Shown: piece after piece, positions 29,037 to 64,000 of the stretch | Numbering within the stretch: position 1 is the first letter of the stretch | How the letters are laid out: each line of letters starts with the position of its first letter | Source of the DNA: an uncultured Paracoccaceae bacterium | GTDB lineage: Bacteria > Pseudomonadota > Alphaproteobacteria > Rhodobacterales > Rhodobacteraceae | Length of the DNA stretch: 64,000 nucleotides | Direction: 5' to 3' | NCBI GenBank assembly: GCA_937983405.1 | Contig: CALJZN010000017.1 | Span: 62,001-126,000 of the forward strand | Position numbers and translations under genes: made by a program | The notes under the pieces: generated by a model | Database searches by the model: none | Told to the model about the DNA's origin: nothing | Seen by the model: only the letters and a program-made list of their open reading frames with translations

Positions 29037-29693
29037 GCTGCGGCCGCAGGGCCCTGAGCCGTCGAGCCGACGCGCGGACCCCCGGCTGCGCGCAGGGCAC
29101 CCCGTGCGGCGGAAGGGGAGGGGGCTGTCCGGCCGGTCGGGCGCGCAGTCCGCGGCGCCGGCCGGGCCGATACGTTTTCGGCGTTGGGCCCGAAGATTTC
29201 GGTGGTGCCGCGCCCCTGCCGGGCGCCGGGCAGACTTCGAATCGCGGGTCCCTCGGGCCTGTCGCAGCGCCGTCGGTTGCCCGCCCGCTGCCTCCGGGCG
29301 CCCGGCCGGCGACCCCGGTGCGGTGCGCAACCTGTCCGAGGGCGGCGCGGCGCGGTCGGCCGACACCCTCGGCACGGCGGGATCGCAGGCCGGGCTGGTC
29401 GCCCAAAGCACGCCCGGAAGAGCCCCCTACCCTCGACCCCGGCAGGGGCCTGACCCCGTGACCCCGCGCGCAGCGTGGAACGGACGCGCCAGCACAGCCG
29501 CGCCGCCGCGCCGCCGCCCCCCCGCGGCCGCCCCGGGGATCACGGCGGCCCGATCTTGTCGCGCTTGCGCCAGATCAATCACCGATCCGGCCGGCCCGGT
29601 TATGGCTTCCGTATAATGCCGCGCGGTTCTGCATCTCGTCGCCACGCGGATCCGGGCCTGCTGCATGCCGAGTGATCCGGGGAGTTGCAGAGC
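29037..29693. other. Long non-coding gap before the molybdoenzyme operon
   Basis: These 657 bases contain no gene I can support on either strand. Codon-like structure is weak and open frames overlap in all registers. The last 130 bases are less GC-rich and hold the promoter elements listed separately (FNR-like site and TATAAT). One frame near 29330-29400 faintly recalls a MmgE/PrpD motif, but too little to call. The length and lack of order suggest decayed DNA. Confidence 0.5.
29565..29617 (+). promoter_or_regulatory. Putative FNR/FnrL-type site and -10 box for the molybdoenzyme operon
   Basis: TTGCGCCAGATCAA at 29565-29578 fits the FnrL pattern TTGA-N6-TCAA at 7 of 8 positions, with the right half-site (ATCAA) perfect. 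A perfect -10 hexamer, TATAAT, follows at 29612-29617. No -35 is visible at the expected place, as is common for activated promoters. The site would be centred near -52 from the implied start, between the usual -41 and -61 positions. Anaerobic activation would suit a respiratory molybdenum reductase. Confidence 0.45.
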
Positions 29694-46747: not shown

Positions 46748-46766
46748 GCCGCGCCCGCGGCGAACG

Positions 46767-46795
46767 GGGGCCCGCGCACACCGGGCGCGGGCCCC
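46767..46795 (+). other. Strong intercistronic stem-loop after the binding-protein gene
   Basis: GGGGCCCGCGC (46767-46777) pairs perfectly with GCGCGGGCCCC (46785-46795) around a 7-base loop. It lies between the binding-protein stop and the permease start, with no T tract. Position and strength mirror the phnD-phnE stem-loop at 26493-26525, suggesting the same function: protecting the receptor mRNA and lowering permease expression. Confidence 0.65.
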
Positions 46796-46810
46796 GACCT
46801 GCCCGATCCC

Positions 46811-48997
46811 ATGCGCCCCGACGCCCGAAGCACTGCGCTCGCAAGCCGCGAGCGGCTTGCCTGGCTGGCGCTGCTGGCGCTGGCCGTCCTGGTGCTGCCC
46901 TGGTATCGCGTCGCGCCGCCGGGGGGAGAGCCGCTGCTGCCCTCGGCGCTGGGCCATGCCGCGGCGGGCCGGGGGTGGCTGTGGCCGGTGGTGGCGGCGC
47001 TGCCGCTGCTCGCACTGGCCGGGGCGCGGGCGCCGGGCGGCCGCGGGTTTCTCGCGCTCGCCCTCGCGGGCCTTGCCGCGCTGGTGGTGCAGGGCTTCGC
47101 GGTGGGCCTTCGCGGGCCCGCGGCGGGCTGGGTCGGCGCCCTGTTTCCCGCCGCCGCGGCCGGGCAGACCGGCCTCGGCTGGGGCGGGTTCACCGCCGGC
47201 GTCGCCCTTCTGGGGCTGGTCGCCCACGGGCTGGCCCTGCGCGGCTTTTGCCGGGGCGACCGGTTCGCGGCCTCGGCGGTGGTGTTCATCGTCGCGCTTC
47301 TGACGCTGTTCGTCTTCTTCCCGATCCTCAGGCTTGCCCTGGCGGCCTTCGTCGGCCCGGACGGCGCGATCGCCTTCGGGCCCTTCCTGTCGCGCTTCCT
47401 TGCGCCCGAGATCTGGCGGCTCGACTGCTTCAGCGGCCCGCGGCGCTGCGGTGTGGTCATCAACTCGCTGGTGCTCGGGCTGCTCTGCGCCACGCTCTGC
47501 ACCGCGCTCGGCCTTGCGCTGGCGCTCGTCGTCGCGCGCACCCCGTTCCGCTTCAAGCAGACCCTCCGCGCGCTGTCGATCCTGCCCATCATCACGCCGC
47601 CCTTCGTGGTGGGCGTGGCGATTGTCGTGCTGTTCGGCCGCACCGGGCTTGTCACCGTCTGGGGGGCCGAGCTGCTCGACATCCGGCCCACGCGCTGGGT
47701 CTACGGGCTGCCGGGCATCCTGATGGCGCAGCTGCTGGCCTTCACGCCGATCACCTTCCTCGTGCTTCTGGGCACGGTCGAGGCGATCAACCCCACGCTC
47801 GAGGAGGCCAGCCAGACCCTGGGCGCGGGGCCGGTGCGCACCTTTCGCAAGATCACCTGGCCGCTCTTGCGCCCCGGGATCGCGGCGGCCTTCCTGCTGG
47901 CCTTCATCGAAAGCCTGGCCGACTTCGGCAACCCCATCGTGCTGGGCGGCGGCTACGAGGTGCTGTCGACCAAGATCTTCTTCGCCGTGGTCGGCGCCCG
48001 CTACGACCTTGGCAATGCCGCCACGCTGGCGATGATCCTGCTGACGCTCACACTCGTCGCCTTCTGGCTGCAGACGCGCTGGCTGGGGCGCAAGAGCTAC
48101 GTCACCGTCACCGGCCGGTCGGATGCGGGGCTGGCGGCCAGCCTGCCCGCCGGGCTGAAGGGGGCGGCCTGGGCGGTGGTTGCCCCCTTCATCGCCTTCA
48201 CCGTCGCCGTCTATGCCATCGTGCTGATCGGCGGCTTCGTGCACGACATCGGACGGTGGGATCTGACGCCCACCTTCGCCCATCTGCGGACCGCCTTCGC
48301 CGTCGAGATCGGGGCCGAGGGGCTGCGCCTCTACGGCTCGGCCTGGAACTCGATGCAGACGACGCTGGCGGTCTCGGCCATCGCCGCGCCGCTGACGACG
48401 CTCGTGGGCATCCTGACCGCCTGGCTGGTGGCGCGGCAGGACTTCGCCGGCAGGCGCAGCTTCGAGTTCGGCACGATGCTGTCCTTCGCGATCCCGGGCA
48501 CGGTGGTGGGGGTCAGCTACGTCGCCGCCTTCAACGTGCCGCCCATCGACATCACCGGCACCGCCGCGATCCTGGTGATCTGCTTTGTCTTTCGCAACAT
48601 GCCGGTGGGCATGCGGGCCGGCATGGCGGCGCTGGCCCAGATCGACCGCAGCATGGAGGAAGCGAGCCAGACCATGGGCGCGGGCAGCGCGCGCACCCTG
48701 CGCCGGGTGGTGCTGCCGCTGATCAAGCCTGCGGTGTTCACCGCGCTGGTCTACAGCTTCGTCACCGCGATGACCGCGGTCTCGGCGGTGATCTTCCTCG
48801 TCTCGGCGCGGCACAACATGGCCACCGCCTACATCATGGGCCGGGTCGAGGCCGGGGAATACGCGCTCGCCATCACCTATTCCACCGTGCTGATGATCGT
48901 GATGATCCTGTGCATCGCGCTGATCCAGCTTCTGGTCGGCGCCCGGCGGCTGGGGCGGCGGCGCGAGTTCCAGGGCCAGGCCCTGCCGGCCGAGTGA
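46811..48997 (+). CDS. ABC transporter permease, Fbp-type with two fused permease domains
   Basis: Inner-membrane permease of 728 residues made of two BPD_transp_1 domains in one chain, so no second permease gene is needed. An extra N-terminal part with about five hydrophobic helices (LAWLALLALAVLVLPWY...) precedes the first domain. Each domain carries its coupling loop: NPTLEEASQTLGAGPVRTFR in the first, DRSMEEASQTMGAGSARTLR in the second. Helices such as LSILPIITPPFVVGVAIVVL and FGTMLSFAIPGTVVGVSYVA are typical for FbpB. It is preceded by a strong stem-loop and followed six bases later by the ATPase gene. Confidence 0.92.
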   Translation: MRPDARSTALASRERLAWLALLALAVLVLPWYRVAPPGGEPLLPSALGHAAAGRGWLWPVVAALPLLALAGARAPGGRGFLALALAGLAALVVQGFAVGLRGPAAGWVGALFPAAAAGQTGLGWGGFTAGVALLGLVAHGLALRGFCRGDRFAASAVVFIVALLTLFVFFPILRLALAAFVGPDGAIAFGPFLSRFLAPEIWRLDCFSGPRRCGVVINSLVLGLLCATLCTALGLALALVVARTPFRFKQTLRALSILPIITPPFVVGVAIVVLFGRTGLVTVWGAELLDIRPTRWVYGLPGILMAQLLAFTPITFLVLLGTVEAINPTLEEASQTLGAGPVRTFRKITWPLLRPGIAAAFLLAFIESLADFGNPIVLGGGYEVLSTKIFFAVVGARYDLGNAATLAMILLTLTLVAFWLQTRWLGRKSYVTVTGRSDAGLAASLPAGLKGAAWAVVAPFIAFTVAVYAIVLIGGFVHDIGRWDLTPTFAHLRTAFAVEIGAEGLRLYGSAWNSMQTTLAVSAIAAPLTTLVGILTAWLVARQDFAGRRSFEFGTMLSFAIPGTVVGVSYVAAFNVPPIDITGTAAILVICFVFRNMPVGMRAGMAALAQIDRSMEEASQTMGAGSARTLRRVVLPLIKPAVFTALVYSFVTAMTAVSAVIFLVSARHNMATAYIMGRVEAGEYALAITYSTVLMIVMILCIALIQLLVGARRLGRRREFQGQALPAE

Positions 48998-49003
48998 GGG
49001 GGC

Positions 49004-50029
49004 ATGACCGACGACATCGCCATCGAGTTCACCGATGTGACCAAGCGCTACGGCGAGGCGCTGGCGGTGGACCGCATCAGCCTTGCCATCGCGAAGGGCG
49101 AGATGGTCACCTTCCTCGGCCCCTCGGGCTGCGGCAAGACGACCTCGCTGCGGCTGATCGCGGGGCTCGAGCTGCCGACCGAGGGCATCGTGCGCATCGC
49201 CGGGCGCGACGTGAGCCGCCATGCGGCGTCTGAGCGCAATGTGGGCATGGTGTTCCAGTCCTACGCCCTCTTCCCGCACATGAGCGTGCTCGACAACGTC
49301 GCCTATGGCCCGGTGATCCGGGGCGAGCCGAAGGGCGTGGCGCGCGAGCGGGCGCGCGCGATTCTCGACCAGATCGGGCTGAAGGGCCTCGAGGCGCGGC
49401 TGCCGTCCGAGCTGTCGGGCGGCCAGCAGCAGCGCGTCGCGGTGGCGCGCGCCATCGTCCAGCAGCCCGACGTGCTCTTGTTCGACGAGCCGCTCTCGAA
49501 CGTCGATGCCAAGCTGCGCCGCAAGGTGCGGGGCGAGATCCGCGAGTTGCAGAAGCGCTTCGGGCTGACGGCCGTCTATGTCACCCACGATCAGGAAGAG
49601 GCGCTGGCCGTCTCGGACCGGATCGTGGTGATGCGCGCGGGGCGGATCGACCAGATCGGCACGCCGCGCGACCTCTACGAGCGCCCGGCCTCGGCCTTCG
49701 TGGCCGACTTCATCGGCGATGCCAACCTGATCGGGGGGCAGGTGCAGGGCGGCCGCTTCCGCGCCGCCGACCTCGACCTGCCGATGGCCGGGCCCGACGG
49801 CGCGGCGCAGATCTCGCTGCGCCCCGAACGCATCGGGCTGACCCCGGGCCTGGGGGCGCCGGCGGGGCGCGTGATGGCCTGCACCTATCTCGGCAGCCGC
49901 TGGGAATACGAGATCGCGACCGGCTTTGCCGAGCTGCTCGCCTCGCGCCCGATCACCGAGGCGCCGATCCCGGCGGGCACGGCGGTGCGGCTGGACATCC
50001 CCGAAACCGCCCCGATCCGGGTGACCTGA
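49004..50029 (+). CDS. ABC transporter ATP-binding protein, Fbp/Pot-type
   Basis: ATPase subunit of the importer, 341 residues. Walker A FLGPSGCGKTTSLRLIAGLE, Q-loop GMVFQSYALFPHMSVLDNVA, signature [20 protein letters not shown], Walker B VLLFDEPLSNVDAKLRRKVR, switch His in VYVTHDQEEALAVSDRIVVM. After residue about 240 comes the TOBE-type regulatory domain (DANLIGGQVQGGRFRAAD ... ISLRPERIGL). Six bases after the permease and one base before the phosphatase-type gene, so all four genes are cotranscribed. Specificity follows from the binding protein and is unknown. Confidence 0.93.
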   Translation: MTDDIAIEFTDVTKRYGEALAVDRISLAIAKGEMVTFLGPSGCGKTTSLRLIAGLELPTEGIVRIAGRDVSRHAASERNVGMVFQSYALFPHMSVLDNVAYGPVIRGEPKGVARERARAILDQIGLKGLEARLPSELSGGQQQRVAVARAIVQQPDVLLFDEPLSNVDAKLRRKVRGEIRELQKRFGLTAVYVTHDQEEALAVSDRIVVMRAGRIDQIGTPRDLYERPASAFVADFIGDANLIGGQVQGGRFRAADLDLPMAGPDGAAQISLRPERIGLTPGLGAPAGRVMACTYLGSRWEYEIATGFAELLASRPITEAPIPAGTAVRLDIPETAPIRVT

Positions 50030-50030
50030 C

Positions 50031-50831
50031 ATGCCCCGCGACCCCGTCGCCGACCGCCTCGCCCTGGCCGAGGCCGCCGCCCGCGCGGCCGGCGCCCATG
50101 CGCTGGCGCTCGCGCGCGACCGCGGCGCGCTGACGGTCGAGACCAAGCACGGCGCGCTCGACATGGTCAGCCGCGCCGACCGCGAGGCCGAGGAGATCGT
50201 GCGCGCCCTGGTCGCGGCGGCCTTCCCCGACGACGGGTTCATGGGCGAGGAGGGGGGCGCGCAGCCCGGCACCTCGGGCTTCACCTGGGTGATCGACCCC
50301 ATCGACGGCACCGTGCCGTTCCTTGCGGGCCTGCCGCACTGGTGCGTGGCGATCGCGGTGCAGGGCGAGGGGGGCACCGCGGCCGGGGCGATCTTTCACC
50401 CCGCGGCGGGCGAGATGTTCACCGCCTGTCACGGCGCCGGCGCCCGGCTCGACGGCGCGGCGCTCCGCATCGCGCCGGACATCCGGCTGACGAGCAGCCT
50501 TGTCGGCATCGGCGCGAGCCACCGCACCGCGCCCGCCCATGTGGCCGAGGCGATCCGGCGCCTGATGGCCGCGGGGGGCATGTTCTACCGCAACGGCTCG
50601 GGCGCGCTGATGCTGGCCGCCGTCGCCGCCGGGCGGCTGGGCGGCTATTACGAGCCGCACATGCACCCCTGGGATTGCCTTGCCGGCCTGCTGCTGGTGC
50701 GCGAGGCGGGCGGGCGCGTCCTGCCCTATCCCGCCGGCGCCGACCTTGCCGCGGGCGGCCCCGTGCTGGCGGCGGCGCCCGGTGTGTGGGACGACCTCGC
50801 CGCGCTGGTGCGCGGGCTGCCCGACGGCTGA
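50031..50831 (+). CDS. Inositol monophosphatase family protein
   Basis: Mg2+-dependent phosphomonoesterase, 266 residues, intact. The three metal motifs are FMGEEGGAQPG, VIDPIDGTVPFLAGLPHW and MHPWDCLAGLLLVREAGGRV (WD motif). DMVSRADREAEEIV holds the N-terminal active-site Lys/Asp region missing from the broken paralogue at 28263. In the family such enzymes dephosphorylate inositol 1-phosphate, histidinol phosphate, PAP or sugar phosphates. Being last in an importer operon, it may release phosphate from an imported phosphoester; this is inference. Start ATG 50031, one base after the ATPase stop. Confidence 0.9.
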   Translation: MPRDPVADRLALAEAAARAAGAHALALARDRGALTVETKHGALDMVSRADREAEEIVRALVAAAFPDDGFMGEEGGAQPGTSGFTWVIDPIDGTVPFLAGLPHWCVAIAVQGEGGTAAGAIFHPAAGEMFTACHGAGARLDGAALRIAPDIRLTSSLVGIGASHRTAPAHVAEAIRRLMAAGGMFYRNGSGALMLAAVAAGRLGGYYEPHMHPWDCLAGLLLVREAGGRVLPYPAGADLAAGGPVLAAAPGVWDDLAALVRGLPDG

Positions 50832-53491: not shown

Positions 53492-53875
53492 ATGGGAAGG
53501 TTGACGTCGGTCAGGGTCGCGCGGGCGGTGGCGGTGCTGTGTGCACTGGCGCTCTGCCTTGTCGGCCTGGCGCATCGTCCCGCCTCGGCCGGGCAGCGGG
53601 CCACCGAGGCCCGGATCGCCGCCTTCCTTGCCGCCGGCGGGACGCTGGACGATGCCTGCCTTTCAGGCGACGCGGACGGGCAGGGTGCGCCCCATGCCGA
53701 ATGCCCGGCCTGCACGCTGGGCAAGGGTATGGCCATGCCCGCGGCGCTGCCCGGACCGTCCCGGAGCCCGGCCTTCTCGGCCGCGCCGGCCTTCTGCCCG
53801 GCGGCGCCGGTCCTGCCGCGCACCGGCGCGCGCGCGCCGCCCGCGACCGGTCCGCCGGCCCTTCCGTTGATCTGA
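53492..53875 (+). CDS. Small secreted protein with CPxC motif, DUF2946-like
   Basis: Predicted exported protein of 127 residues. Signal peptide AVAVLCALALCLVGLAHRPA, then a mature part with ATEARIAAFLAAGGTLDDAC and HAECPACTLGKGMAMPAALP, a His-Cys-x2-Cys element like that of DUF2946 proteins, which often sit beside copper-related genes. The rest is Ala/Pro-rich. ATG 53492 has little Shine-Dalgarno support. It is followed after 74 bases by the MbnP gene on the same strand. Metal binding or membrane insertion of the Cys motif is possible; function unknown. The 200 bases upstream (53291-53491) show no further gene. Confidence 0.62.
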   Translation: MGRLTSVRVARAVAVLCALALCLVGLAHRPASAGQRATEARIAAFLAAGGTLDDACLSGDADGQGAPHAECPACTLGKGMAMPAALPGPSRSPAFSAAPAFCPAAPVLPRTGARAPPATGPPALPLI

Positions 53876-53949
53876 GCCTGCCCGGCCCGCTCCGCGGGCC
53901 GCGGCCGCCGCCGTCTGCGCGGCCCACCGATCAACCCGAGGGACATGCC

Positions 53950-54825
53950 TTGCAACGCTTCCTCCTCGCGGCCTGCGCCGCCCTGATCGCCGGTCCGGCT
54001 CTGGCCGACATGACCGTGGAAATCCCCTTCGCCGCCGAGATCGCCGGCACCCCCTTTGCCTGCGCCGCCAGCTACCCCGGGCTGGGGGCGGCCGGCACCG
54101 AGGTGGGCGTGCTCGACTTCCGCCTCTTCGTCTCGGCCGTCCGGCTGATCGCCGCCGACGGCAGCCGCGTGCCCGCGGCGCTGGCGCAGGATGGCGCCTG
54201 GCAGGTCGAGGACGTGGCGCTGCTGGACTTCGAGGACGCCAGCGGCTTCTGCGCCAACGGCACGCCGCAGATGAACCGCGTGCTGCGCGGCACCGTGCCC
54301 GAGGGCAGCTATCGCGGGCTTGCCTTCGAGCTGGGCGTGCCCTTCGCGCGCAACCACGGCGATCCGACCGTGGCGCCCCCGCCGCTCAACCTGACGGCGA
54401 TGTTCTGGAACTGGCGCGGCGGCTACACGTTCGCCAAGATCGAGTTCCTGCCCGCGGCGGCGATGACCGCGGCGGGCGCGGCGCAGGCCGAGGGGCCGGG
54501 CCACGGCGGGCCGAAGGGCTGGATGCTGCATCTCGGCTCGACGATGTGCGCCGCCGCGGACGCGACGACCCCGCCCGCCGCGCCCTGCGCCAACCCCAAC
54601 CGCGTGGCGGTGGAGCTGCCCGATTTCGTGCCTTGCGCCTCGGTCGTGGTGATCGACCCGGCCCCGGTGGTGGCGGGGGCGGACCTGACCTTCAACACGC
54701 CCGACACCAGCCTCGGCTGCATGTCGTTCCCCAACGATCCCGACTGCAACACCGTGCTGCCGCGGCTGGGGCTGGCGTTCAACGCCTTCCCGGCCGAGGT
54801 GCAGCGTCTTGTCGCGCTGCGCTGA
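53950..54825 (+). CDS. MbnP-family metallo-mystery pair protein
   Basis: Periplasmic protein of the MbnP family (four-Cys motif 'metallo-mystery pair' protein), 291 residues, always found with an MbnH diheme enzyme. TTG 53950 follows GAGGGAC and opens a signal peptide (LLAACAALIAGPALADM). The mature protein begins VEIPFAAEIAGTPFACAASY. It has paired cysteines (FACAAS, GFCANGT, STMCAAAD, PCASVV, GCMSFPNDPDCNTVLP) and the family core LNLTAMFWNWRGGYTFAKIE. In the studied methanotroph pair, MbnH converts one MbnP tryptophan to kynurenine and the product binds copper; the FWNW tryptophans here are obvious candidates but I cannot say which one. The end PRLGLAFNAFPAEVQRLVAL is family-typical. Confidence 0.87.
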   Translation: MQRFLLAACAALIAGPALADMTVEIPFAAEIAGTPFACAASYPGLGAAGTEVGVLDFRLFVSAVRLIAADGSRVPAALAQDGAWQVEDVALLDFEDASGFCANGTPQMNRVLRGTVPEGSYRGLAFELGVPFARNHGDPTVAPPPLNLTAMFWNWRGGYTFAKIEFLPAAAMTAAGAAQAEGPGHGGPKGWMLHLGSTMCAAADATTPPAAPCANPNRVAVELPDFVPCASVVVIDPAPVVAGADLTFNTPDTSLGCMSFPNDPDCNTVLPRLGLAFNAFPAEVQRLVALR

Positions 54826-54836
54826 GGGCAGCGACC

Positions 54837-56191
<1,355 letters not shown>

Positions 56192-56195
<4 letters not shown>

Positions 56196-56992: not shown

Positions 56993-57901
56993 ATGACTCG
57001 CCTGCTGCTCACCACCGCCCTGATCCTGGCGCCCGTCGCGACCCTGGCCCAGTCCTACGAGGAAGAGGACTGGCGGTCCGAATGGAAGCAAATCACCTTC
57101 GGCGTCGGCACCGGCGAGAACGCCCAGTCGGCGGTCGAGCGCTGGTCGCATTTCGGCGCCTACCTGCAGTCCTGCATGGGCATCGAGAAGGTCGAGGTGC
57201 GCGTCGCCTCGGACTACTCGGCGATCATCGAGGCGCAGGCCAACGGCGACGTCCAGCTCAGCTGGACCGGCCCGGCCGGCTATGCCACCGGCTGGGACAT
57301 CTCGGGCGGCGACGTGCAGCCGATCGCGATGGACGTCTCGGTGAACGGCGATCTCGGCTACAAGTGGGTCATCGCGGTCCGGGCCGACAGCCCCTACCAG
57401 ACGCTGGAGGATCTGCGGGGCAAGACGCTGGGCTGGTCCTCGCCGACGTCGGCCTCAGGCTATGTGCTGCCGATGCAGTATTTCCGCGAGCGGGGCATGG
57501 TGGATGCCAACAACGAGCCGGTGTTCTTCGGCGCGCTCGTGCAGACCGGCAGCCACGACAACGGGCTGGTGGCCGTGGTGCAGGGCACCATCGACGCCAC
57601 GACCAACTGGTACTATTCGCCCGCGGCCGGCAACCACACCCGCGCCGCCGGCAACGGCACGATCAAGCTCGAGGACATCCGCTTCATCTTCGAATCGGCC
57701 TTGGTTCCCAACGCCCCCTTCGTTGCGACCAAGAGCCTGCCCGAGCCGATGAAGGCCAAGATGCAGGCCTGCATCATCAACATGCAGTGGGCCGACCCGG
57801 CCGCCTTCGAGAAGGTCGCGCGCAACGTCTTCGGCGGCTTCGGCGCCACAACGCACGAGGACTACATTCCCTTCATCAAGATCCGCATGGCGACCAAGTG
57901 A
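56993..57901 (+). CDS. phnD: PhnD-family phosphonate/oxyanion binding protein of second phn operon
   Basis: Periplasmic receptor, 302 residues. Signal peptide LLLTTALILAPVATLAQSYE. The mature part reads KQITFGVGTGENAQSAVERW, then VEVRVASDYSAIIEAQANGD and VQLSWTGPAGYATGW. The lobe-two region [33 protein letters not shown] is clearly PhnD-like. It differs much from the PhnD at 25583 in ligand-contact residues (SWTGPAG against GWHGPGS; SPTSASG against PNSTSG), so it probably binds a different ligand. GGAGGGAC lies before ATG 56993. Here phnD is the first gene, and the ATPase follows after two bases. Confidence 0.9.
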   Translation: MTRLLLTTALILAPVATLAQSYEEEDWRSEWKQITFGVGTGENAQSAVERWSHFGAYLQSCMGIEKVEVRVASDYSAIIEAQANGDVQLSWTGPAGYATGWDISGGDVQPIAMDVSVNGDLGYKWVIAVRADSPYQTLEDLRGKTLGWSSPTSASGYVLPMQYFRERGMVDANNEPVFFGALVQTGSHDNGLVAVVQGTIDATTNWYYSPAAGNHTRAAGNGTIKLEDIRFIFESALVPNAPFVATKSLPEPMKAKMQACIINMQWADPAAFEKVARNVFGGFGATTHEDYIPFIKIRMATK

Positions 57902-57903
57902 CC

Positions 57904-58692
57904 ATGGCCGACCCGGCCCCCTCCGGCACGTTCCTGCGGCTGGAGGGGATCACCAAGACCTACGGCGCGGCGCGCGCGCTCGACGGCGTCACGCTCGAGG
58001 TCGCCCGGGGCGAGATGACCGCCGTGATCGGGCGGTCGGGGGCGGGGAAGTCGACGCTCCTGACCGTCATCAACCGGCTGATCGACCCCGACGCCGGCCG
58101 CATGACCTGCGAGGGGCGCGATATCCTGGCGCTGCGCGGCCGGGCGCTGCGCGACTGGCGGCGGCGCTGCGCGATGGTGTTCCAGCGCTTCAACCTGGTC
58201 TCGCGGCTGCCGGTGCTGACCAACGTGATGACCGGGCGGCTGGCCATGCGGCCGCTGATCCCGTCGCTGCTCGGTCTTTTCACCGACGAGGACCGTGCCG
58301 CGGCGATCGAGGCGCTGGTGGCGCTCGACATGGGGCCGCACGCGCTCAAGCGCGCGGACGAGCTGTCGGGCGGCCAGCAGCAGCGCGTCGCCATCGCCCG
58401 GGCGCTGGTGCAGGAGCCGCAGATCGTGCTGGCCGACGAACCGGTGGCCAGCCTCGATCCGCGCAACGCCGAGGCGGTGATGGAGGCGCTGGCGCGCATC
58501 AACCGCGACCGCGGCATCACCGTGCTGATCAACCTGCATTCGGTGGCGCTGGCGCGCGCCTACTGCCGGCGCAGCGTGGCGATGTCGGCCGGGCGGATCG
58601 TCTACGACGGGCCGACCGAAGGGCTGACGCCGCCGGTGCTCGAGCGCATCTACGGCACCGCCGACCTCGACGCGATCGAGGACGCCGCGTGA
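57904..58692 (+). CDS. phnC: PhnC-type ABC transporter ATP-binding protein of second phn operon
   Basis: ATPase subunit, 262 residues. Walker [22 protein letters not shown]-loop MVFQRFNLVSRLPVLTNVMT, signature [20 protein letters not shown], Walker [21 protein letters not shown], and LHSVALARAYCRR with the switch histidine. It resembles the PhnC at 24777 throughout, yet with enough differences to be an old paralogue rather than a recent duplicate. Two bases after phnD, and overlapping the first permease gene by four bases (GTGA). Confidence 0.92.
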   Translation: MADPAPSGTFLRLEGITKTYGAARALDGVTLEVARGEMTAVIGRSGAGKSTLLTVINRLIDPDAGRMTCEGRDILALRGRALRDWRRRCAMVFQRFNLVSRLPVLTNVMTGRLAMRPLIPSLLGLFTDEDRAAAIEALVALDMGPHALKRADELSGGQQQRVAIARALVQEPQIVLADEPVASLDPRNAEAVMEALARINRDRGITVLINLHSVALARAYCRRSVAMSAGRIVYDGPTEGLTPPVLERIYGTADLDAIEDAA

Positions 58693-59555
58693 CCAGCGTC
58701 GAGCAGGTGCAGGCCGCCTGGGCTGCGCAGCGTCGCGTCCGGCTCGGCCAGACCGCGCTGATCGCGGTGGCGCTGGTCGTTGCCGTCCTGATCTCGGCCG
58801 ATCTGGGCGAGGTCGATCTGGTCCGGCTGTGGGAGCGCTCGGACCGCCTCGGCAACTATTTCGGCCGCATGGTCCCGCGCCTCGCCTGGGAGACGCTGGC
58901 CGAGGACCTGGCCCGGTGGTATCGGCGCGGCGACCGCTGGCTGCGCGAGCTGGGCGTGACGATCCTGATCGCGATCTATGCGACGCTGTTCGGCATGGTG
59001 CTGGCGGTGCTCGGGGCCTTCGTCGCCGCGCGCCCGCTGGCCCCGGCTGCCTGGGCCTGCTGGGCGATGCGCCGAACCTTCGAGTTCGCGCGCACGGTGC
59101 CGGAACTGGTGTTCGCGGTGCTCTTCGTCTTCTCCTTCGGCATCGGGCCGCTGGCCGGGGTGCTGGCGATCGCGCTGCACAGCATGGGGGCGCTGGGCAA
59201 GCTGTTCTCCGAGGTGGCCGAGAACGCCGACCCCGAACCCATCCGCGGCGTGCGCGCCACCGGCGCCTCCTGGCCGCAGGTGATGCGCTACGGCGCGCTG
59301 CCGCAGGTGGCGCCCGCCTTCCTGTCCTACGGCCTGCTGCGCTTCGAGATCAACGTGCGCGCGGCCTCGGTGCTGGGGTTCGTGGGCGCGGGCGGGATCG
59401 GGCAGGAGCTCTACACGGCGATCAAGAGCTTCGCCTACACCGACATCTCGGCGATCGCGCTGATGCTGATCGTCTCGGTCACGGTGATCGACGTCGTCTC
59501 GGAACGCCTGCGCCACCGCCTGATCGGGGCGGCCAGCCTGCGGGCGGCGGCATGA
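58689..59555 (+). CDS. phnE: PhnE-type permease subunit 1 of second phn operon
   Basis: Inner-membrane permease, 288 residues, GTG start inside the phnC stop. First helix TALIAVALVVAVLISADLGE; then WYRRGDRWLRELGVTILIAI, FEFARTVPELVFAVLFVFSF and VGAGGIGQELYTAIKSFAYT. The coupling loop lies around ENADPEPIRGVRATGASWPQ. These elements correspond one-to-one to the first PhnE at 26534. Overlaps the second permease gene by four bases (ATGA). Confidence 0.92.
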   Translation: MTSVEQVQAAWAAQRRVRLGQTALIAVALVVAVLISADLGEVDLVRLWERSDRLGNYFGRMVPRLAWETLAEDLARWYRRGDRWLRELGVTILIAIYATLFGMVLAVLGAFVAARPLAPAAWACWAMRRTFEFARTVPELVFAVLFVFSFGIGPLAGVLAIALHSMGALGKLFSEVAENADPEPIRGVRATGASWPQVMRYGALPQVAPAFLSYGLLRFEINVRAASVLGFVGAGGIGQELYTAIKSFAYTDISAIALMLIVSVTVIDVVSERLRHRLIGAASLRAAA

Positions 59556-60367
59556 CCCGGATCGAGGCTGCCCGCGCCGCCTGCCCCGAGGCCTTTCCGG
59601 GCCGCGGCTGGCGCTGGTATGCGCGCATCGCCGGGGGCGTGGTGCTGGCGGTGATGTTCCTCTGGGGGCTCTCCGTGCTGGGGTTCAGCCTCGACCGGCT
59701 GTCGCGCGGGCTTGCGCGGCTGGGCGGCGTGGCCATGATGATGATGCCGCCAAGCAGCGGCGGCCTGGCCTGGACCTACGTCAGGGGCATTGCCGAGACG
59801 GTGGCCATGGCCTTCATCGGGACGCTGGTCGCCTCGATCCTGGCCGTGCCGCTGGGGTTCGTGGGCGCCAAGAACACGATGCCGCTCGGCCCGCTGCGGT
59901 TTCTGACCCGACGCGGCTTCGATGTGGTGCGGGGCCTCGACAGCCTGATCTGGGCGATCGTCTTCGTTTCGGTCATCGGCCTCGGTCCCTTCGCGGGGAT
60001 CCTCGCGATCGCCGTCAACGACACCGGGGTCCTGGCCAAGCTCTATGCCGAGGCCATCGAGAATGCCGATGCCGACCAGAGCCGGGGCATCCGCGCGACC
60101 GGGGCGGGGCGGTTGCAGGTGATGCGCTTCTCGATCCTGCCGCAGGTGATGCCGGTGTTCCTGTCGAACACCCTCTACTTCTTCGAATCCAACGTGCGCT
60201 CGGCAACGATCCTGGGGGTCGTCGGCGCCGGCGGCATCGGGTTTTACCTGATGGACCGGATCCAGATCAACGCCTGGCCGCAGGTCGCCTTCATCATCCT
60301 TCTGATCCTCGTCACGGTCGGCGTCATCGACGCGATCAGCTACCGCATCCGGCGACGGCTGATCTGA
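59552..60367 (+). CDS. phnE: PhnE-type permease subunit 2 of second phn operon
   Basis: Second permease, 271 residues. First helix IAGGVVLAVMFLWGLSVLGF, then MMMPPSSGGLAWTYVRGIAE, FVGAKNTMPLGPLRFLTRRG, RGLDSLIWAIVFVSVIGLGP and VVGAGGIGFYLMDRIQINAW. It pairs with the preceding permease. The operon ends here; the following 269 bases (60368-60636) are extremely GC-rich and show no gene, only the upstream region of the sensor operon with GGGAGGATCGG before its TTG start. No phosphonate-degrading gene accompanies this transporter in the window. Confidence 0.92.
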   Translation: MTRIEAARAACPEAFPGRGWRWYARIAGGVVLAVMFLWGLSVLGFSLDRLSRGLARLGGVAMMMMPPSSGGLAWTYVRGIAETVAMAFIGTLVASILAVPLGFVGAKNTMPLGPLRFLTRRGFDVVRGLDSLIWAIVFVSVIGLGPFAGILAIAVNDTGVLAKLYAEAIENADADQSRGIRATGAGRLQVMRFSILPQVMPVFLSNTLYFFESNVRSATILGVVGAGGIGFYLMDRIQINAWPQVAFIILLILVTVGVIDAISYRIRRRLI

Positions 60368-60636: not shown

Positions 60637-61506
60637 TTGGAACGGTGGATCAGGGTCTCGCGCCGGTGGGTGCTGGCCGCAGCGGCAGGGCTTGCGGCCG
60701 CGTCCCGCGCGCCGCGCGCCGACACCCGCCGGGCGCTCCGCTTCGGCCTGACGCCGGTGTTTCTGGACAACGACTGGCAGCTTCTCGACCGCCTGGGCCA
60801 GCATTTCCGCGAGGCGACCGGCCGGGATGTCGAGTATTTCCAGCGCCGGACCTACAAGGAGGTCGTGGCCCTGCTGCTGCTGGGCGAGATCGATGCGGCC
60901 TGGCTGTGCGGCTATCCCCTGCTTCAGCATCCGGGGCGCCTCGAGGCGGTGGCGATCCCGGTCTGGCGGGGGCAACCCCTGTATCGCGCCTACCTGATCG
61001 TGCCGCACGACCGCGCAGCGTCCGAGTTCGCCGATCTGCGCGGCGACATCCACGCCTACTCGGATCCCGATTCGAACTCGGGCCATCTGGTCACGGTGGC
61101 GCGGCTGCTCGAGCTTGGGGTGCGGCCCGAGCAGTTCTTCGCCCGGAGCTTCTTCACCTTCGGGCACCGCAATGTCGTGCGCGCGGTGGCGCGCCGGCTG
61201 GCGCAGAGCGGCAGCGTCGATGGCTATGTCTACGATGTGCTTTCGGTCACCGAGCCCGATCTGGTGGCGCGCACGCGGGTTCTGTGGCGGTCCGGCTGGC
61301 ATGGGTTTCCCCCCGTCGTGGCCACCGCCGAAGCCGCGGGCACCGCCGCCGTCGAGGCCATCGTCGCGGCGCTGTCCGGCATTTCCGCGACGGCAGCGGG
61401 GCGCGACGTGCTGGCGATGCTCCAGCTCGACGGCTTCGCCGCGCCCGCGCCCGGCAGTTTCGACAGCATCGCGGCGCTGATGCGCCTCGTTGCCGAAAGA
61501 GGATAG
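60637..61506 (+). CDS. PhnD-like periplasmic binding protein, likely sensor component
   Basis: Exported solute-binding protein of the PhnD-like (phosphate/phosphonate-binding, TtrS/AioX-type) family, 289 residues. TTG 60637 follows GGGAGGAT; the leader RVSRRWVLAAAAGLAAASRA has a twin arginine. Mature motifs: LRFGLTPVFLDNDWQLLDRL, VEYFQRRTYKEVVALLLLGE, IDAAWLCGYPLLQ, and AYSDPDSNSGHLVTVARLLE (second-lobe ligand region). No transporter permease follows; instead the histidine kinase starts four bases later. In AioX-AioS-AioR and within TtrS, such domains bind an oxyanion (arsenite, tetrathionate) and signal to the kinase, so this is probably the ligand receptor of the system. Confidence 0.85.
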   Translation: MERWIRVSRRWVLAAAAGLAAASRAPRADTRRALRFGLTPVFLDNDWQLLDRLGQHFREATGRDVEYFQRRTYKEVVALLLLGEIDAAWLCGYPLLQHPGRLEAVAIPVWRGQPLYRAYLIVPHDRAASEFADLRGDIHAYSDPDSNSGHLVTVARLLELGVRPEQFFARSFFTFGHRNVVRAVARRLAQSGSVDGYVYDVLSVTEPDLVARTRVLWRSGWHGFPPVVATAEAAGTAAVEAIVAALSGISATAAGRDVLAMLQLDGFAAPAPGSFDSIAALMRLVAERG

Positions 61507-61509
61507 CGC

Positions 61510-62946
61510 GTGCGGCTTCTCGTTCCCCTGCCGCTCAGCCTGCGGGTGCCGATGATCGTGGCGGCCCTGATGGTCCTGATGGGCATTGTCGCCTCGCAGC
61601 TTGTGCTCGCGGCGCTGAACCGCAGCCAGGTCCGGCAACTGACCGACCTCGCCGAAATCGAGTTCAGCGCCCTGACGACCGCGCTTGGCCCCTACGTCCA
61701 GCGCGACGACATCTGGGAGATGTTCGACATCCTCGACCGTGCGACCCTGCGCGTCGGCGGTTTCCGTCCGATCATGGCAACGCTGATCGATGCCCGCGGG
61801 CGCGTGATCGTCTCGTCCCAGCCCGAGGTCCACCCGATCGGCACGGACGGGGTTGACCTGATCGCCCGGGCGATCCTGCTCGACGATATCCGCTACGACA
61901 CCGCCAGCGACCGGATCTCGCTGCGCAACACGGTGGTCTGGCAGGGGCGGCCGGTCGGCCAGCTCGTGATCGATTTCGACGTGCGCGAGTTCGCTGCCGA
62001 GCGGCGGCGCACCGGGTGGACCCTGCTTCTGGGCAACGCGGCCGCGATCCTCGTGCTTTCGGTCGCGGGCTATGCGCTGATGCGGCGCGTCCTGGCCCCG
62101 ATCCGGCGCCTGACCCGCGAGATGGCGCAGCCGGGCGGCGCGCCGCAGCCGATCCCCGAGGCGATGGTGCCCGCCCGCGATCCCGAACTGGCGCAGCTCT
62201 TCCACACCTACAACAGCCTGATCCGCGCGGTGCAGGCGCGCACCTCGGCCGAGCGCCGGCTGGCCGAGCGCGAGCGCTATGTCAGCCTCGGTCGGCTTGC
62301 CGGCGGTCTGGCGCATGAGATCAACAATCCGCTCGGCGGGCTTCTGAACACGGTGGACACGATCCGGACCTACGCGGACCGGCCCGATGTTGTCCGCCAG
62401 GGCGTCGAGCTTCTCGACCGCGGGCTGAAGCATCTGCGGGATGTCTCGCGCACGACGCTGGATTTGCACCGCGGCACCGACGGCCGGGGTCCGGGCGAGC
62501 AGGGGCTGAGCCGGCAGGACTTCGACGACCTGCATCTGCTGATCCGGCCCGAGACCGACCGCAAGGCGCAGACGCTCGATTGGCAGGTCGCGTCCGACCT
62601 GTCGGGCTGCGACCGGCTTCCGGCCGGCCCGGTGCGGCAGATCGTGCTGAACCTGCTGTTGAATGCCGCCGCCATCTCGGGCCCCTGCGGCGATCTCGGG
62701 GTGCGGGTCGTCCGGGATCGGGGCATGCTGTCGCTGTCGGTGTGGGATTCGGGTCCGGGTTTCCCCGACGCGATGAAGCCGAGGCTCCTGTCGGATGATC
62801 CGGTCGAGCCGGGCGAGGGGCTTGGGTTGCGGCTGGTGCGGGATCTGGTCAAGTCGCTGGGCGGGTCCATCGAACTGGGCCTGTCGCCCGAGGGGCGCAA
62901 CGAGGTGCGGGTGAGCTTGCCGGTGGACGAGGACCGACGTGCTTGA
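61510..62946 (+). CDS. Membrane sensor histidine kinase paired with PhnD-like receptor
   Basis: Two-component kinase, 478 residues. A first helix (VPMIVAALMVLMGIVASQLV) and a second (LLLGNAAAILVLSVAGYALM, about 175-195) enclose a periplasmic domain of about 140 residues. A HAMP-like linker follows (RRVLAPIRRLTREMAQPGG). The phosphoacceptor is His269 in LAGGLAHEINNPLGGLLNTV. The ATPase domain has VLNLLLNAAAISG (N box), VWDSGPGFPDAM (G1) and EGLGLRLVRDLVKSLGGSIE (G2). The HxEINNPL form is that of NtrB/AtoS-like kinases that partner NtrC-type regulators, as found next. GTG start 61510; it overlaps the regulator gene by eight bases. Confidence 0.92.
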   Translation: MRLLVPLPLSLRVPMIVAALMVLMGIVASQLVLAALNRSQVRQLTDLAEIEFSALTTALGPYVQRDDIWEMFDILDRATLRVGGFRPIMATLIDARGRVIVSSQPEVHPIGTDGVDLIARAILLDDIRYDTASDRISLRNTVVWQGRPVGQLVIDFDVREFAAERRRTGWTLLLGNAAAILVLSVAGYALMRRVLAPIRRLTREMAQPGGAPQPIPEAMVPARDPELAQLFHTYNSLIRAVQARTSAERRLAERERYVSLGRLAGGLAHEINNPLGGLLNTVDTIRTYADRPDVVRQGVELLDRGLKHLRDVSRTTLDLHRGTDGRGPGEQGLSRQDFDDLHLLIRPETDRKAQTLDWQVASDLSGCDRLPAGPVRQIVLNLLLNAAAISGPCGDLGVRVVRDRGMLSLSVWDSGPGFPDAMKPRLLSDDPVEPGEGLGLRLVRDLVKSLGGSIELGLSPEGRNEVRVSLPVDEDRRA

Positions 62947-64000
62947 AGGCCGGCACATCGCGCTCGTGGAGGACGACGAGATCATGGGCGGCTCGATCCT
63001 GCAGCGGCTCGAGCTGGAGGGTGCGCGGGTCGTCTGGCTGAAAACGATGCACCGCGCGCTCGGGGCGCTGCGCACCCCGCGCCAGCGCTTCGACGCGGTG
63101 GTCTGCGACATCCGGCTTCCGGACGGGTCCGGCGAGGAGCTGTTCAACAGGCTCTGCGAACACGGCGCGCCGCCGCCCTTCCTGTTCATGACCGGGCGGG
63201 GGGCTGCCGAGCAGGCGGTGCGGCTGTTGCGCTCGGGCGCCGCCGACTATGTGACGAAGCCCTTCGACATGGGCGGCTTCCTCGAGCGGCTGAGCCAGGT
63301 GATCGCGCCGCAGGTCGCAGGAGGGGCGGGGCCCTGGTTCGGCGTCTCGCCCATGGCCCGGGCGCTGGACGACGACCTTGTGCGCATCGCCGACCGCGCC
63401 GAGCCGGTGCTGATCCTCGGCGAAAGCGGGACGGGCAAGCGCATCGTCGCGCGGCGCCTGCACGCGCTGTCGGATCGCCGGGCCGCGCCCTTCGTCGCGC
63501 TGGACCTGACGCGCCTGCCGCCGGAGGAGATGGCGCGGGAGGTTCTTGACCCCGATCGCGGGGCGCTGGCCCGGGCCGGCGAGGGGGTTCTGCTGATCGA
63601 ACGGATCGGCGTGGCGACGGCCGAACTGCAGGTCGGCCTGCTGACCACGCTCTGGGGCGGCGCCGGCGCGGCGGGTCCGAGGCTGATCGCGACCGACGGC
63701 CCCGATCTGTCGCCCGACCGGCTGCGCCCTGACCTCTATTTCCATCTCGCCGCCCTCGCGCTGACCATCCCTCCGCTGCGAAGCCGGCCCGAGGATGCCG
63801 TCTGGCTGATGGCGCGGCTGTTCGAGGGGATGAACGCGCGGCGCGCGACCCCGTTGCGGGGCCTCTCGCACCCGGCAGAGCAGGCGGTGCGCGCCCATGA
63901 CTGGCCGGGCAACGGACGCGAGCTGCGTGCGCGCCTGATGCGCGCGATGGCGATGGCCCGGGGCGAGACGGTCTTTCCCGCCGACCTCTTTCCGGAAGGC
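62939..64000 (+). CDS. NtrC-family response regulator lacking the GAFTGA loop (3' end outside window)
   Basis: First 354 codons. Receiver domain: IALVEDDEIMGGSI (acidic pair), phosphoacceptor Asp57 in VVCDIRLPDGSGEELF, FMTGRGAAEQAV (Thr) and YVTKPFDM (Lys). AAA+ domain: Walker A ILGESGTGKRIVARRLHALS, Walker B-like GVLLIERIGVATAELQVGLL (usual DE is ER), sensor region SPDRLRPDLYFHLAALALTI, and HDWPGNGRELRARLM. The sigma-54 contact loop GAFTGA is absent: LDPDRGALARAGEGVLL stands there, several residues shorter. Rhodobacter capsulatus NtrC also lacks this loop and works with the housekeeping sigma factor. The DNA-binding end lies beyond the window. GTG 62939 overlaps the kinase gene. Confidence 0.9.
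   Translation, partial: MLEGRHIALVEDDEIMGGSILQRLELEGARVVWLKTMHRALGALRTPRQRFDAVVCDIRLPDGSGEELFNRLCEHGAPPPFLFMTGRGAAEQAVRLLRSGAADYVTKPFDMGGFLERLSQVIAPQVAGGAGPWFGVSPMARALDDDLVRIADRAEPVLILGESGTGKRIVARRLHALSDRRAAPFVALDLTRLPPEEMAREVLDPDRGALARAGEGVLLIERIGVATAELQVGLLTTLWGGAGAAGPRLIATDGPDLSPDRLRPDLYFHLAALALTIPPLRSRPEDAVWLMARLFEGMNARRATPLRGLSHPAEQAVRAHDWPGNGRELRARLMRAMAMARGETVFPADLFPEG

What the first reader, a model, noticed from the sequence alone, without database searches (positions are those of the whole stretch)
60637..64000. Three-component sensor: PhnD-like receptor, histidine kinase, NtrC-type regulator in one operon
The PhnD-like exported protein has no permease or ATPase of its own; it is followed by four bases and then a membrane kinase, which overlaps an NtrC-type regulator. 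This is the architecture of AioX-AioS-AioR (arsenite) and of the PhnD-like sensor domain in TtrS (tetrathionate), but here it stands beside a phosphonate-type importer. The ligand could be a phosphonate, phosphite, or a sulfur or arsenic oxyanion. The window also contains a molybdenum oxyanion-reductase operon of the type such systems regulate, although that one is broken.
Basis: partly seen in the sequence, partly recalled or inferred. Interest (0 to 1): 0.72.

Follow-up and report, generated by a model that had tools for sequence, protein, structure and literature searches.

The report
Arsenite sensor lacking sigma-54 contact
The three genes look like an arsenite sensor directly in front of an arsenite-oxidising enzyme operon in a probably photosynthetic bacterium, a known kind of system, but its gene switch belongs to a branch that has lost the parts normally used to work with the special sigma factor such switches need.

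Summary
The receptor is an AioX/ArxX-type arsenite sensor, not a transport PhnD: 308 bits to AioX versus 39 to PtxB; all seven published pocket residues are kept, Cys91 matching arsenite-binding Cys106. The likely target lies just past the window edge: arxB2-A-B-C-D and an Acr3/ArsC/ArsR island. So this is an arxXSR-arxB2ABCD cluster, a known kind.

The departure is the regulator. All 31 Rhodobacteraceae XSR regulators examined lack the sigma-54-contacting GAFTGA loop, and 30 of 31 the Walker-B Asp-Glu; 37 of 39 others in the tree keep the loop. rpoN was not found in 11 of 25 near-complete relatives with the regulator. Sigma-54 (-24/-12) sites are at chance level, 2 of 30 regions against 15 of 33. 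A palindrome, TGTYCGGAWWTCCGRACA, follows the regulator gene in 30 of 31 loci, with a -10-like TANNNT about 99 bp on. Best reading: arsenite sensing rewired to a sigma-70 promoter, as for Rhodobacter NtrC. Binding, phosphorylation and promoter use are inferred. The phnDCEE importer is not conserved beside XSR.

The parts
60637..61506 (+). arxX/aioX-type periplasmic arsenite receptor (TTG start, 289 aa, signal peptide-like N-terminus by eye)
   Evidence: PDB phmmer: AioX 6esv 308 bits, ArrX 106, PtxB 39; tree inside alphaproteobacterial AioX/ArxX, 97 support for the Rhodobacteraceae arx clade
60907..60909 (+). codon of Cys91, aligned with AioX Cys106 that bonds arsenite in 6EU7 (PMC5908839)
   Evidence: alignment; pocket check: C in 78 of 78 X proteins, G in 4 of 4 own PhnD-type proteins compared
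61510..62946 (+). arxS/aioS-type membrane sensor histidine kinase (GTG start, 478 aa; hydrophobic stretches at about residues 2-38 and 168-198; H-box at 269, N and G boxes present)
   Evidence: Pfam HisKA and HATPase_c; motif and hydropathy positions
62939..64000 (+). arxR/aioR-type response regulator, first 354 of 419 residues; continues to 64198 outside the window (end of AAA+ and Fis-type HTH)
   Evidence: receiver Asp57 invariant in 27 of 27 aligned
63419..63439 (+). Walker A (GESGTGK) retained in the regulator
63518..63607 (+). region where the sigma-54-contacting GAFTGA loop is missing and Walker B reads VLLIERI instead of LFLDEI
   Evidence: alignments and against NtrC1 1ny5

Best explanation
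This is an ArxXSR arsenite-sensing system controlling the adjacent arxB2ABCD (anaerobic arsenite oxidase) operon in a probably phototrophic Rhodobacteraceae bacterium. Steps: (1) arsenite in the periplasm binds ArxX through Cys91; (2) ArxX-arsenite activates the membrane kinase ArxS; (3) ArxS phosphorylates Asp57 of ArxR; (4) ArxR~P binds two palindromes (TGTCCGGAAATCCGGACA, perfect, and a weaker copy 32 bp on) just downstream of its own stop codon; (5) it activates a sigma-70-type promoter whose -10-like element lies about 99 bp downstream, not a sigma-54 promoter, because its AAA+ domain has lost the GAFTGA loop and Walker-B Asp-Glu; (6) arxB2ABCD is made. Shown here by sequence: identity of the parts, gene order, pocket residues, loop loss, site conservation and spacing. 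Inferred: binding, phosphorylation, promoter type, direction of regulation. Confidence in the arsenite/arx identity about 0.93; in sigma-54 independence about 0.8; in the particular sigma-70 promoter about 0.65.
For: Receptor: AioX 308 bits vs PtxB 39; pocket residues Y88, C106, Y131, S161, S163, H192, D210 and loop V56-F57-L58 of AioX all identical here (list from PMC5908839). Target: ferredoxin-like ArxB2 and TAT-signal ArxA follow the regulator; ArxA continues on contig C125 through a 141-base exact overlap, then ArxB, ArxC (NrfD), ArxD (TorD-like), ArsR, Acr3 (TIGR00832, 384 vs cut-off 283), ArsC-like; the same X-S-R-B2-A-B-C-D is unbroken in G237. ArxA is 61-62% identical to the enzymes of Thioalkalivibrio ALMg11 and AKL19, strains that PMC6549141 lists as arx holders. 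Sigma-54 loss: 31 of 31 Rhodobacteraceae regulators lack GAFTGA, 30 of 31 lack the Walker-B Asp-Glu; rpoN not found in 11 of 25 near-complete genomes with the regulator, nor in Pseudotabrizicola sediminis, MAG G393 or the own MAG; -24/-12 at p<=0.05 in 2 of 30 regions without vs 15 of 33 with the loop, Fisher p 0.0006. Promoter: palindrome in 30 of 31 Rhodobacteraceae loci, missing only in L132, which also has no AioA; the own genome has one copy at 0-2 mismatches; TANNNT 100+-1 bp from the palindrome in 18 of 22 aio-type loci (200 shuffled sets reached at most 4) and 98-100 bp from the nearer palindrome in 7 of 7 arx loci.
Against: No wet evidence. The own genome is a 76%-complete MAG, so missing rpoN there is weak. 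14 of 25 near-complete relatives, and 4 of the 6 named arx genomes of this group, do have an rpoN match. Two regions without the loop still show -24/-12-like sites (L044, L131). L046 keeps the Walker-B Asp-Glu. The TANNNT was found on the alignment that suggested it, no -35 is recognisable, 4 of 22 aio-type loci lack it at that spacing, another pattern (GCNNNG) recurs in 16, and several arx regions hold more than one TANNNT with no shuffle test made for them. The second palindrome of the own locus matches only 13 of 18. One Rhodobacteraceae arx contig with 5 kb upstream of arxB2 (L101) has no X found. ArxA crosses a contig break in this assembly.
Confidence: 0.8

Rival explanations
1. The receptor senses a phosphonate or phosphite and reports on the neighbouring phnDCEE importer.
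For: It starts 269 bp downstream of a phnDCEE operon and has the PF12974 fold family. phn operons do occur in arsenic islands (PMC3834237 passages).
Against: AioX 308 bits vs phosphite/phosphonate binders <=39; Cys106-equivalent present, where the own PhnD-type proteins compared have Gly; no phnC+phnD+phnE set beside XSR in the relatives' loci searched; the genes directly downstream are arx; the only good palindrome in the genome is at arxB2.
Confidence: 0.03
2. It is an ArrX-type arsenate sensor serving an arsenate reductase.
For: ArxA is related to ArrA (NF041714 220 bits for the N-terminal third), and ArrX shares the pocket Cys.
Against: Receptor 308 bits to AioX vs 106 to ArrX; it keeps the V-F-L loop whose V and F PMC5908839 says ArrX lacks; the ArrA model scores the enzyme's pieces 220, 202 and 69 bits against a cut-off of 1600; gene order B2-A-B-C-D is that of arx (PMC6549141 section 16).
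Confidence: 0.06
3. The regulator still works through sigma-54 with a divergent contact surface.
For: The AAA+ fold, Walker A and the arginines at 283 and 327 are kept; 14 of 25 near-complete relatives have rpoN.
Against: GAFTGA absent in 31 of 31 and Walker-B Asp-Glu in 30 of 31; rpoN not found in 11 of 25 near-complete genomes with the regulator; -24/-12 at chance level.
Confidence: 0.1
4. The regulator is a decaying relic and the operon is constitutive or ruled by ArsR.
For: Two functional motifs of the AAA+ domain are lost.
Against: Regulator homologues span 31 loci (the search met one stop codon inside the match in some); receiver Asp57 and Lys107 are invariant in 27 aligned and the HTH is conserved; confident AAA+ model (block means averaging 93 for residues 131-350); the palindrome is kept in 30 of 31 loci and absent only in one lacking AioA.
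Confidence: 0.06

Closest known systems
AioXSR of Rhizobium NT-26 / Agrobacterium 5A / Herminiimonas
   Same: Same three proteins, order and receptor pocket; the receptor aligns over 254 residues with AioX of the PDB entries from NT-26; two palindromes upstream of the oxidase are reported for aio operons with aioXSR (PMC3834237 section 11).
   Different: There the regulator has GAFTGA (AoxR, PMC2848651 passages) and RpoN with a -24/-12 promoter is needed; here the loop and the promoter are missing. The letters of the published palindrome were not seen (figure not held), so sameness of the site is not established.
ArxXSR-arxB2ABCD of Alkalilimnicola, Ectothiorhodospira, Thioalkalivibrio
   Same: Same regulator set with the same enzyme operon.
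   Different: There XSR is commonly upstream on the opposite strand (PMC6549141 section 16; 34 of 46 loci with X); here XSR is upstream on the same strand, as in all 7 Rhodobacteraceae-type loci with X. The X protein is of the alphaproteobacterial lineage that also holds AioX.
Rhodobacter capsulatus NtrC and HupR, Caulobacter NtrC, Vibrio VpsR
   Same: NtrC-family regulators without GAFTGA or without sigma-54 interaction, reported for NtrC to act at sigma-70 promoters (PMC10274813 section 19 and passages, PMC3162934 passages). The first paper writes 'VspR'; I take it to be VpsR (recalled), which is also a PDB match (65 bits).
   Different: Those take other inputs (nitrogen, hydrogen, c-di-GMP/phosphate; partly recalled); here the input is an arsenite-binding periplasmic protein, and the Walker-B Asp-Glu is lost too.
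TtrS (tetrathionate)
   Same: PhnD-like sensing ahead of a histidine kinase (recalled).
   Different: The receptor is a separate protein here; the kinase scores 26 bits against a TtrS cut-off of 750.

Membership tests
AioX/ArxX/ArrX arsenic-oxyanion receptors | Closer to AioX than to transport PhnD/PtxB proteins | tested here: met
   308 vs 39 bits; tree split from 5 own PhnD-type proteins, support 99
AioX/ArxX/ArrX arsenic-oxyanion receptors | Pocket Tyr88, Cys106, Tyr131, Ser161, Ser163, His192, Asp210 (PMC5908839) | tested here: met
   7 of 7 identical
AioX/ArxX/ArrX arsenic-oxyanion receptors | Binds arsenite (Aio/Arx) or arsenate (Arr) | not testable with these tools
   needs protein; sequence points to arsenite
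ArxXSR-arxB2ABCD | X-S-R next to arxB2-A-B-C-D | tested here: met
   one contig break bridged by a 141-base exact overlap, order confirmed in G237
ArxXSR-arxB2ABCD | ArxA of the Arx clade | tested here: met
   58-86% identity to the loci, among them strains named as arx holders in PMC6549141; no ArxA/ArrA tree built
ArxXSR-arxB2ABCD | XSR on the opposite strand upstream of arxB2 (common arrangement, not required) | tested here: not met
   same strand, upstream
ArxXSR-arxB2ABCD | Arsenite oxidation by the enzyme | not testable with these tools
   needs culture or expression
Sigma-54-dependent NtrC-family activators (as AioR/ArxR are described) | GAFTGA loop | tested here: not met
   absent here and in all 31 Rhodobacteraceae regulators examined
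Sigma-54-dependent NtrC-family activators (as AioR/ArxR are described) | Walker B Asp-Glu | tested here: not met
   VLLIERI here; kept in 1 of the 31, L046
Sigma-54-dependent NtrC-family activators (as AioR/ArxR are described) | -24/-12 promoter at the target | tested here: not met
   best match 3 mismatches, shuffle p 0.51
Sigma-54-dependent NtrC-family activators (as AioR/ArxR are described) | rpoN in the genome | tested here: inconclusive
   no hit, but MAG 76% complete; not found in 11 of 25 near-complete relatives with the regulator
PhnD of phosphonate importers | PhnD family score and clustering with transport binding proteins | tested here: not met
   TIGR03431 66 bits vs cut-off 261; separate from own PhnD-type proteins in the tree

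The most novel reading that the evidence does not exclude
In the Rhodobacteraceae the whole arsenite-sensing XSR branch, whether it serves AioBA or ArxB2ABCD, was rewired once from sigma-54 to a sigma-70-type promoter: the regulator lost its sigma-54 loop and then its ATPase signature (L046, which keeps Walker B, may show the order), the -24/-12 element disappeared, the operator palindrome stayed, and a -10 element arose at a fixed distance of about 99 bp, freeing arsenite oxidation from rpoN and letting it persist in rpoN-less genomes.
Probability: 0.7. Interest if true: 0.55.

Novelty: new variant of a known kind. Interest (0 to 1): 0.45.

Why it matters
AioR/ArxR (older name AoxR) is described in the papers seen as a sigma-54 activator (PMC5908839, PMC3834237, PMC2848651). 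If this branch works without sigma-54, that description does not hold for a sizeable group of arsenite oxidisers, and comparing it with GAFTGA-bearing alphaproteobacterial regulators whose loci carry the same kind of palindrome (L055, L126) gives a clean case of how an enhancer-binding protein is converted to a sigma-70 activator. Regulator, operator and spacing are defined well enough to test directly. The own genome also carries reaction-centre genes, so this is a candidate for light-driven arsenite oxidation in a Rhodobacteraceae lineage.

Tried and rejected
Phosphonate or phosphite receptor: rejected by the AioX match and pocket. TtrS-like or NtrBC pair: kinase and regulator reach no NCBIfam cut-off among the 25 models shown for each, of 38 and 74. 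PhnDCEE as part of the system: no conserved set beside XSR in relatives (the first search at a high threshold gave nothing, repeated lower; L050, L046, L134 and L140 have under 1.6 kb upstream of X). Sigma-54 site upstream of arxB2: none better than chance in the own locus. Palindrome upstream of arxX in the window: none with <=2 mismatches in the 7+7 arms at 4-base spacing. Wrong family asked: one search searched nifB by mistake; one search then asked the intended reaction-centre family. A fold search of the AlphaFold model was not run; sequence matches already gave NtrC1 and VpsR.

One search tested 63 regions; loci without X, R or B2, with XSR downstream, or without an intergenic stretch, and L042, L046, L047 were not counted, and the divergent regions are longer (each has its own shuffles). 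L124 and L125 are counted as without the loop though they are not of this family (L125 reads GAFTSA). One search left out L046. Of seven PF12974 hits in the own genome the weak one on C18 was not put in the tree, and the tree's five became four (C4 protein not included there). 'Rhodobacteraceae' means the own genome's family f1 in the genome set plus five named loci, which NCBI places in Paracoccaceae.

Literature: no paper of the library holds both AioR and GAFTGA (0 papers); searches listed none that I recognised as describing a GAFTGA-less AioR/ArxR, but the library holds open-licence papers only, the listings show 4-20 papers, and PMC2848651 discusses the loop under the older name AoxR. 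What I saw: PMC5908839 sections 4 and 13; PMC6549141 sections 16, 17 and passages; PMC3834237 section 11 and passages; PMC10274813 section 19 and passages; PMC7533571, PMC2848651, PMC6011840, PMC3162934 passages; PMC6683785 and PMC8407463 abstract and outline. The -24/-12 consensus used and the -10 TANNNT pattern are recalled.
Full report
WHAT IS THERE. The window is C17:62001-126000 of a 2.7 Mb, 127-contig, 76%-complete genome. Three + strand genes end the window: a PF12974 periplasmic-type protein (60637-61506), a histidine kinase (61510-62946) and a response regulator with receiver, AAA+ and Fis-type HTH domains (62939-64198; the last 198 bases are outside the window). Receptor and kinase are 3 bases apart; kinase and regulator overlap by 8. 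Upstream lies a complete phnD-phnC-phnE-phnE importer (56993-60367) with its own binding protein.

BEYOND THE EDGE. The contig runs 2,464 bases further. A ferredoxin-like 4Fe-4S protein (L008:4622-5689) and the first 315 residues of a TAT-signal molybdopterin oxidoreductase follow; the best PDB match of the latter is arsenate reductase ArrA, 197 bits. The ArrA model found the rest of the enzyme at the start of contig C125, and the two contig ends share an exact 141-base overlap. The joined enzyme has 828 residues. C125 then carries ArxB (4Fe-4S), ArxC (NrfD family), ArxD (TorD/nitrate-reductase-delta family), a haem-binding-domain protein, ArsR, Acr3 (384 bits, cut-off 283), a universal stress protein, and an ArsC-like phosphatase (106 bits, cut-off 174) fused to a glyoxalase domain, and an ORF at the contig end that looks like a second ArsR (by eye). 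In G237, X-S-R-B2-A-B-C-D stand unbroken on one strand; its contig has the length of, and the same genes as, that of the Loktanella MAG RGIG994 (L056).

THE RECEPTOR. Against the PDB it scores 308 bits with AioX, 106 with ArrX, 39 with PtxB. Mapped with the alignment, the seven AioX residues named as the arsenite/phosphate pocket (PMC5908839) are all identical, Cys106 being Cys91 here, its only cysteine; so are V56-F57-L58 of the loop that closes on arsenite. Cys is present in 78 of 78 X proteins and is Gly in the 4 PhnD-type proteins of the same genome compared. In an 83-row tree the X proteins are separated from five own PhnD-type proteins (99) and the window receptor lies in a Rhodobacteraceae arx clade of 7 (97), next to Rhodobacteraceae aio receptors and inside an alphaproteobacterial set of 40 (99), not with the beta/gammaproteobacterial ArxX (quick method, long branches flagged by the program). 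This matches the published remark that XSR follows the host rather than the enzyme (PMC5908839). That paper reports arsenite Kd values of 177 nM (AioX) and 311 nM (ArxX) and no binding of the other oxyanions tested, phosphonate included.

HOW COMMON. Of 390 genomes of the order, 26 (the own one included) have the regulator at E<=1e-60. In all 25 relatives X, S and R stand together. One has arx (G237); 22 of the other 24 have AioA beside XSR (of six AioA-type proteins checked by family model, the five from this family score 1084-1127 bits against a cut-off of 359); one (L046) has a sulfite-dehydrogenase-like enzyme, one (L132) neither. The ArxA scan of named genomes gave 70 loci. X is upstream on the same strand in 8, divergent in 34, downstream on the same strand in 4, and not found in 24, part of those cut by contig ends. 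All 7 Rhodobacteraceae-type loci with X are collinear (L107 among them is titled Hyphomicrobiales but is nearly the same as L052; the eighth collinear one, L055, is another alphaproteobacterium); L076, L099 and L101, titled Loktanella or Rhodobacteraceae, have no X found, L101 in spite of 5 kb upstream.

THE REGULATOR HAS LOST THE SIGMA-54 PARTS. The own AAA+ domain reads APFVALDLTRLPPEEMAREVLDPDRGALARAGEGVLLIERIG where ArxR of Ramlibacter (L077) reads ...[35 protein letters not shown]. Over the 70 regulators of the tree, 37 have GAF[TS]GA and 33 do not; the 33 are all 31 Rhodobacteraceae plus L124 and L125. The Walker-B Asp-Glu is gone in 30 of the 31, L046 keeping it. On a tree built without those columns the loop state needs two changes, and one Rhodobacteraceae clade is not rejected (AU p 0.59). 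Receiver Asp57, Thr85, Lys107 and the Walker A glycines and lysine are invariant in 27 aligned, and an AlphaFold model is confident (mean pLDDT 89.8). rpoN was sought in 40 genomes. In the 25 relatives (99-100% complete) it was not found in 11. Of six named arx genomes of this group, it was not found in Pseudotabrizicola sediminis (G390) or G393 and matched in the other four. Outside the group it was found in 9 of 9 arx genomes; in 8 of these I have the regulator with the loop, in L061 no regulator passed my threshold. The own MAG has none. In the order as a whole 140 of 390 have some match and 63 one over the cut-off, so the regulator is neither confined to nor excluded from rpoN-less genomes.

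THE PROMOTER HAS CHANGED TOO. A -24/-12 match better than 95% of shuffles was found in 15 of 33 regions whose regulator has the loop and in 2 of 30 whose regulator lacks it (Fisher p 0.0006). An alignment of six Rhodobacteraceae arx intergenic regions showed tandem palindromes right after the regulator stop. The consensus TGTYCGGAWWTCCGRACA within 150 bp of the stop is better than 99% of shuffles in 34 of 39 alphaproteobacterial loci, and in 30 of 31 Rhodobacteraceae; the exception, L132, has no AioA beside it. The own genome has one site with 0 mismatches (C17:126212-126229, i.e. position 64212 in window numbering) and otherwise only sites with 3 mismatches: two for the strict and three for the degenerate pattern, against none and two on each strand for the reversed control. 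So, within a 76%-complete genome, the predicted regulon is essentially this one operon. A TANNNT lies 100+-1 bp from the start of the palindrome in 18 of 22 aio-type loci; 200 shuffled sets reached at most 4, and of 64 patterns of that shape TANNNT is the most recurrent, GCNNNG coming next with 16. In the six arx loci with two palindromes (32-34 bp apart) a TANNNT lies 131-133 bp from the first, hence 98-100 from the second; in L042, with one palindrome, 98 bp; several of these regions hold other TANNNT as well. In the own locus it is TAATCT at 64343 in window numbering. No -35 element is evident by eye. PMC8407463 (abstract) reports that most alphaproteobacterial sigma-70 promoters analysed lack T at -7, with core genes over-represented there, so a fixed T is compatible with, not proof of, sigma-70 use.

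COMPARISON. PMC3834237 (section 11) found two palindromes and -24/-12 regions in all 12 aioBA operons with aioXSR it studied; PMC2848651 (passages) shows rpoN is needed in Herminiimonas and points to GAFTGA. Here a palindrome stays and the -24/-12 goes. NtrC of Rhodobacter capsulatus and others in the Rhodobacterales lack the loop; the former is reported to act through sigma-70 with phosphorylation, and ATP binding rather than hydrolysis (PMC10274813); the loss of Walker-B Asp-Glu here fits that pattern. The mechanism is therefore modelled on a known one; its presence in the arsenite-sensing family is what I did not find in print (searches, open-licence library only).

VERDICT. Identity and ligand class: close to settled by sequence. 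Sigma-54 independence: supported by four lines (loop, Walker B, missing rpoN in part of the genomes, missing -24/-12). Sigma-70 promoter: supported by phased spacing, untested. The system is a known kind with a regulatory variant.

Noticed in passing
L046:7966-13177 (G379:C10): An X-S-R set with the receptor cysteine and the operator palindrome stands next to a sulfite-dehydrogenase-like molybdoenzyme (SoxC/SorT models 146 and 143 bits, under cut-off) and a small c-type-cytochrome-like ORF (by eye) instead of AioBA or Arx. Possibly a new arsenite-linked or sulfite-linked enzyme. Its regulator lacks GAFTGA but keeps Walker B.
   Followed up: partly
L047:6544-9540 (G283:C1): AioB and AioA are read as one 998-residue frame: small-subunit model at 44-147, large-subunit model at 186-978.
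   Followed up: partly
window 29685-31493: A TAT-signal DMSO-reductase-family gene has an in-frame TGA at 30063 where ArxA carries a Trp (WDEA motif); a 229-aa Fe-S-type ORF follows at 31498.
   Followed up: partly
L008:4515-4540 (window numbering 64315-64340): A perfect 10-bp inverted repeat TCACGGTATG-N6-CATACCGTGA lies between the palindromes and the -10-like element; partial copies in L051, L109, L111. The aio loci have a different repeat, roughly TTGCCGC-N3-GCGGCA, between palindrome and -10 (by eye). Function unknown.
   Followed up: no
L132 (G289:C107): An X-S-R set with neither AioA nor the palindrome nearby: an orphan sensor.
   Followed up: no
window 53539-56195: A probable MbnP-like protein followed by a di-haem cytochrome c peroxidase (MbnH/MauG-like), by eye and recall only.
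   Followed up: no
window 45737-50828: A 2-aminoethylphosphonate-type ABC transporter set (PhnS2/PhnU2/PhnT2-like, all under cut-off) with an inositol-phosphatase-family gene.
   Followed up: no
G000:C11:2678-4331: Two photosynthetic reaction-centre genes (PF00124, 341 and 328 bits): the host is probably phototrophic.
   Followed up: no
L041:8501-9322: ArsC-type low-molecular-weight phosphatase fused in frame to a glyoxalase-superfamily domain, in the arsenic island downstream of arxD.
   Followed up: no
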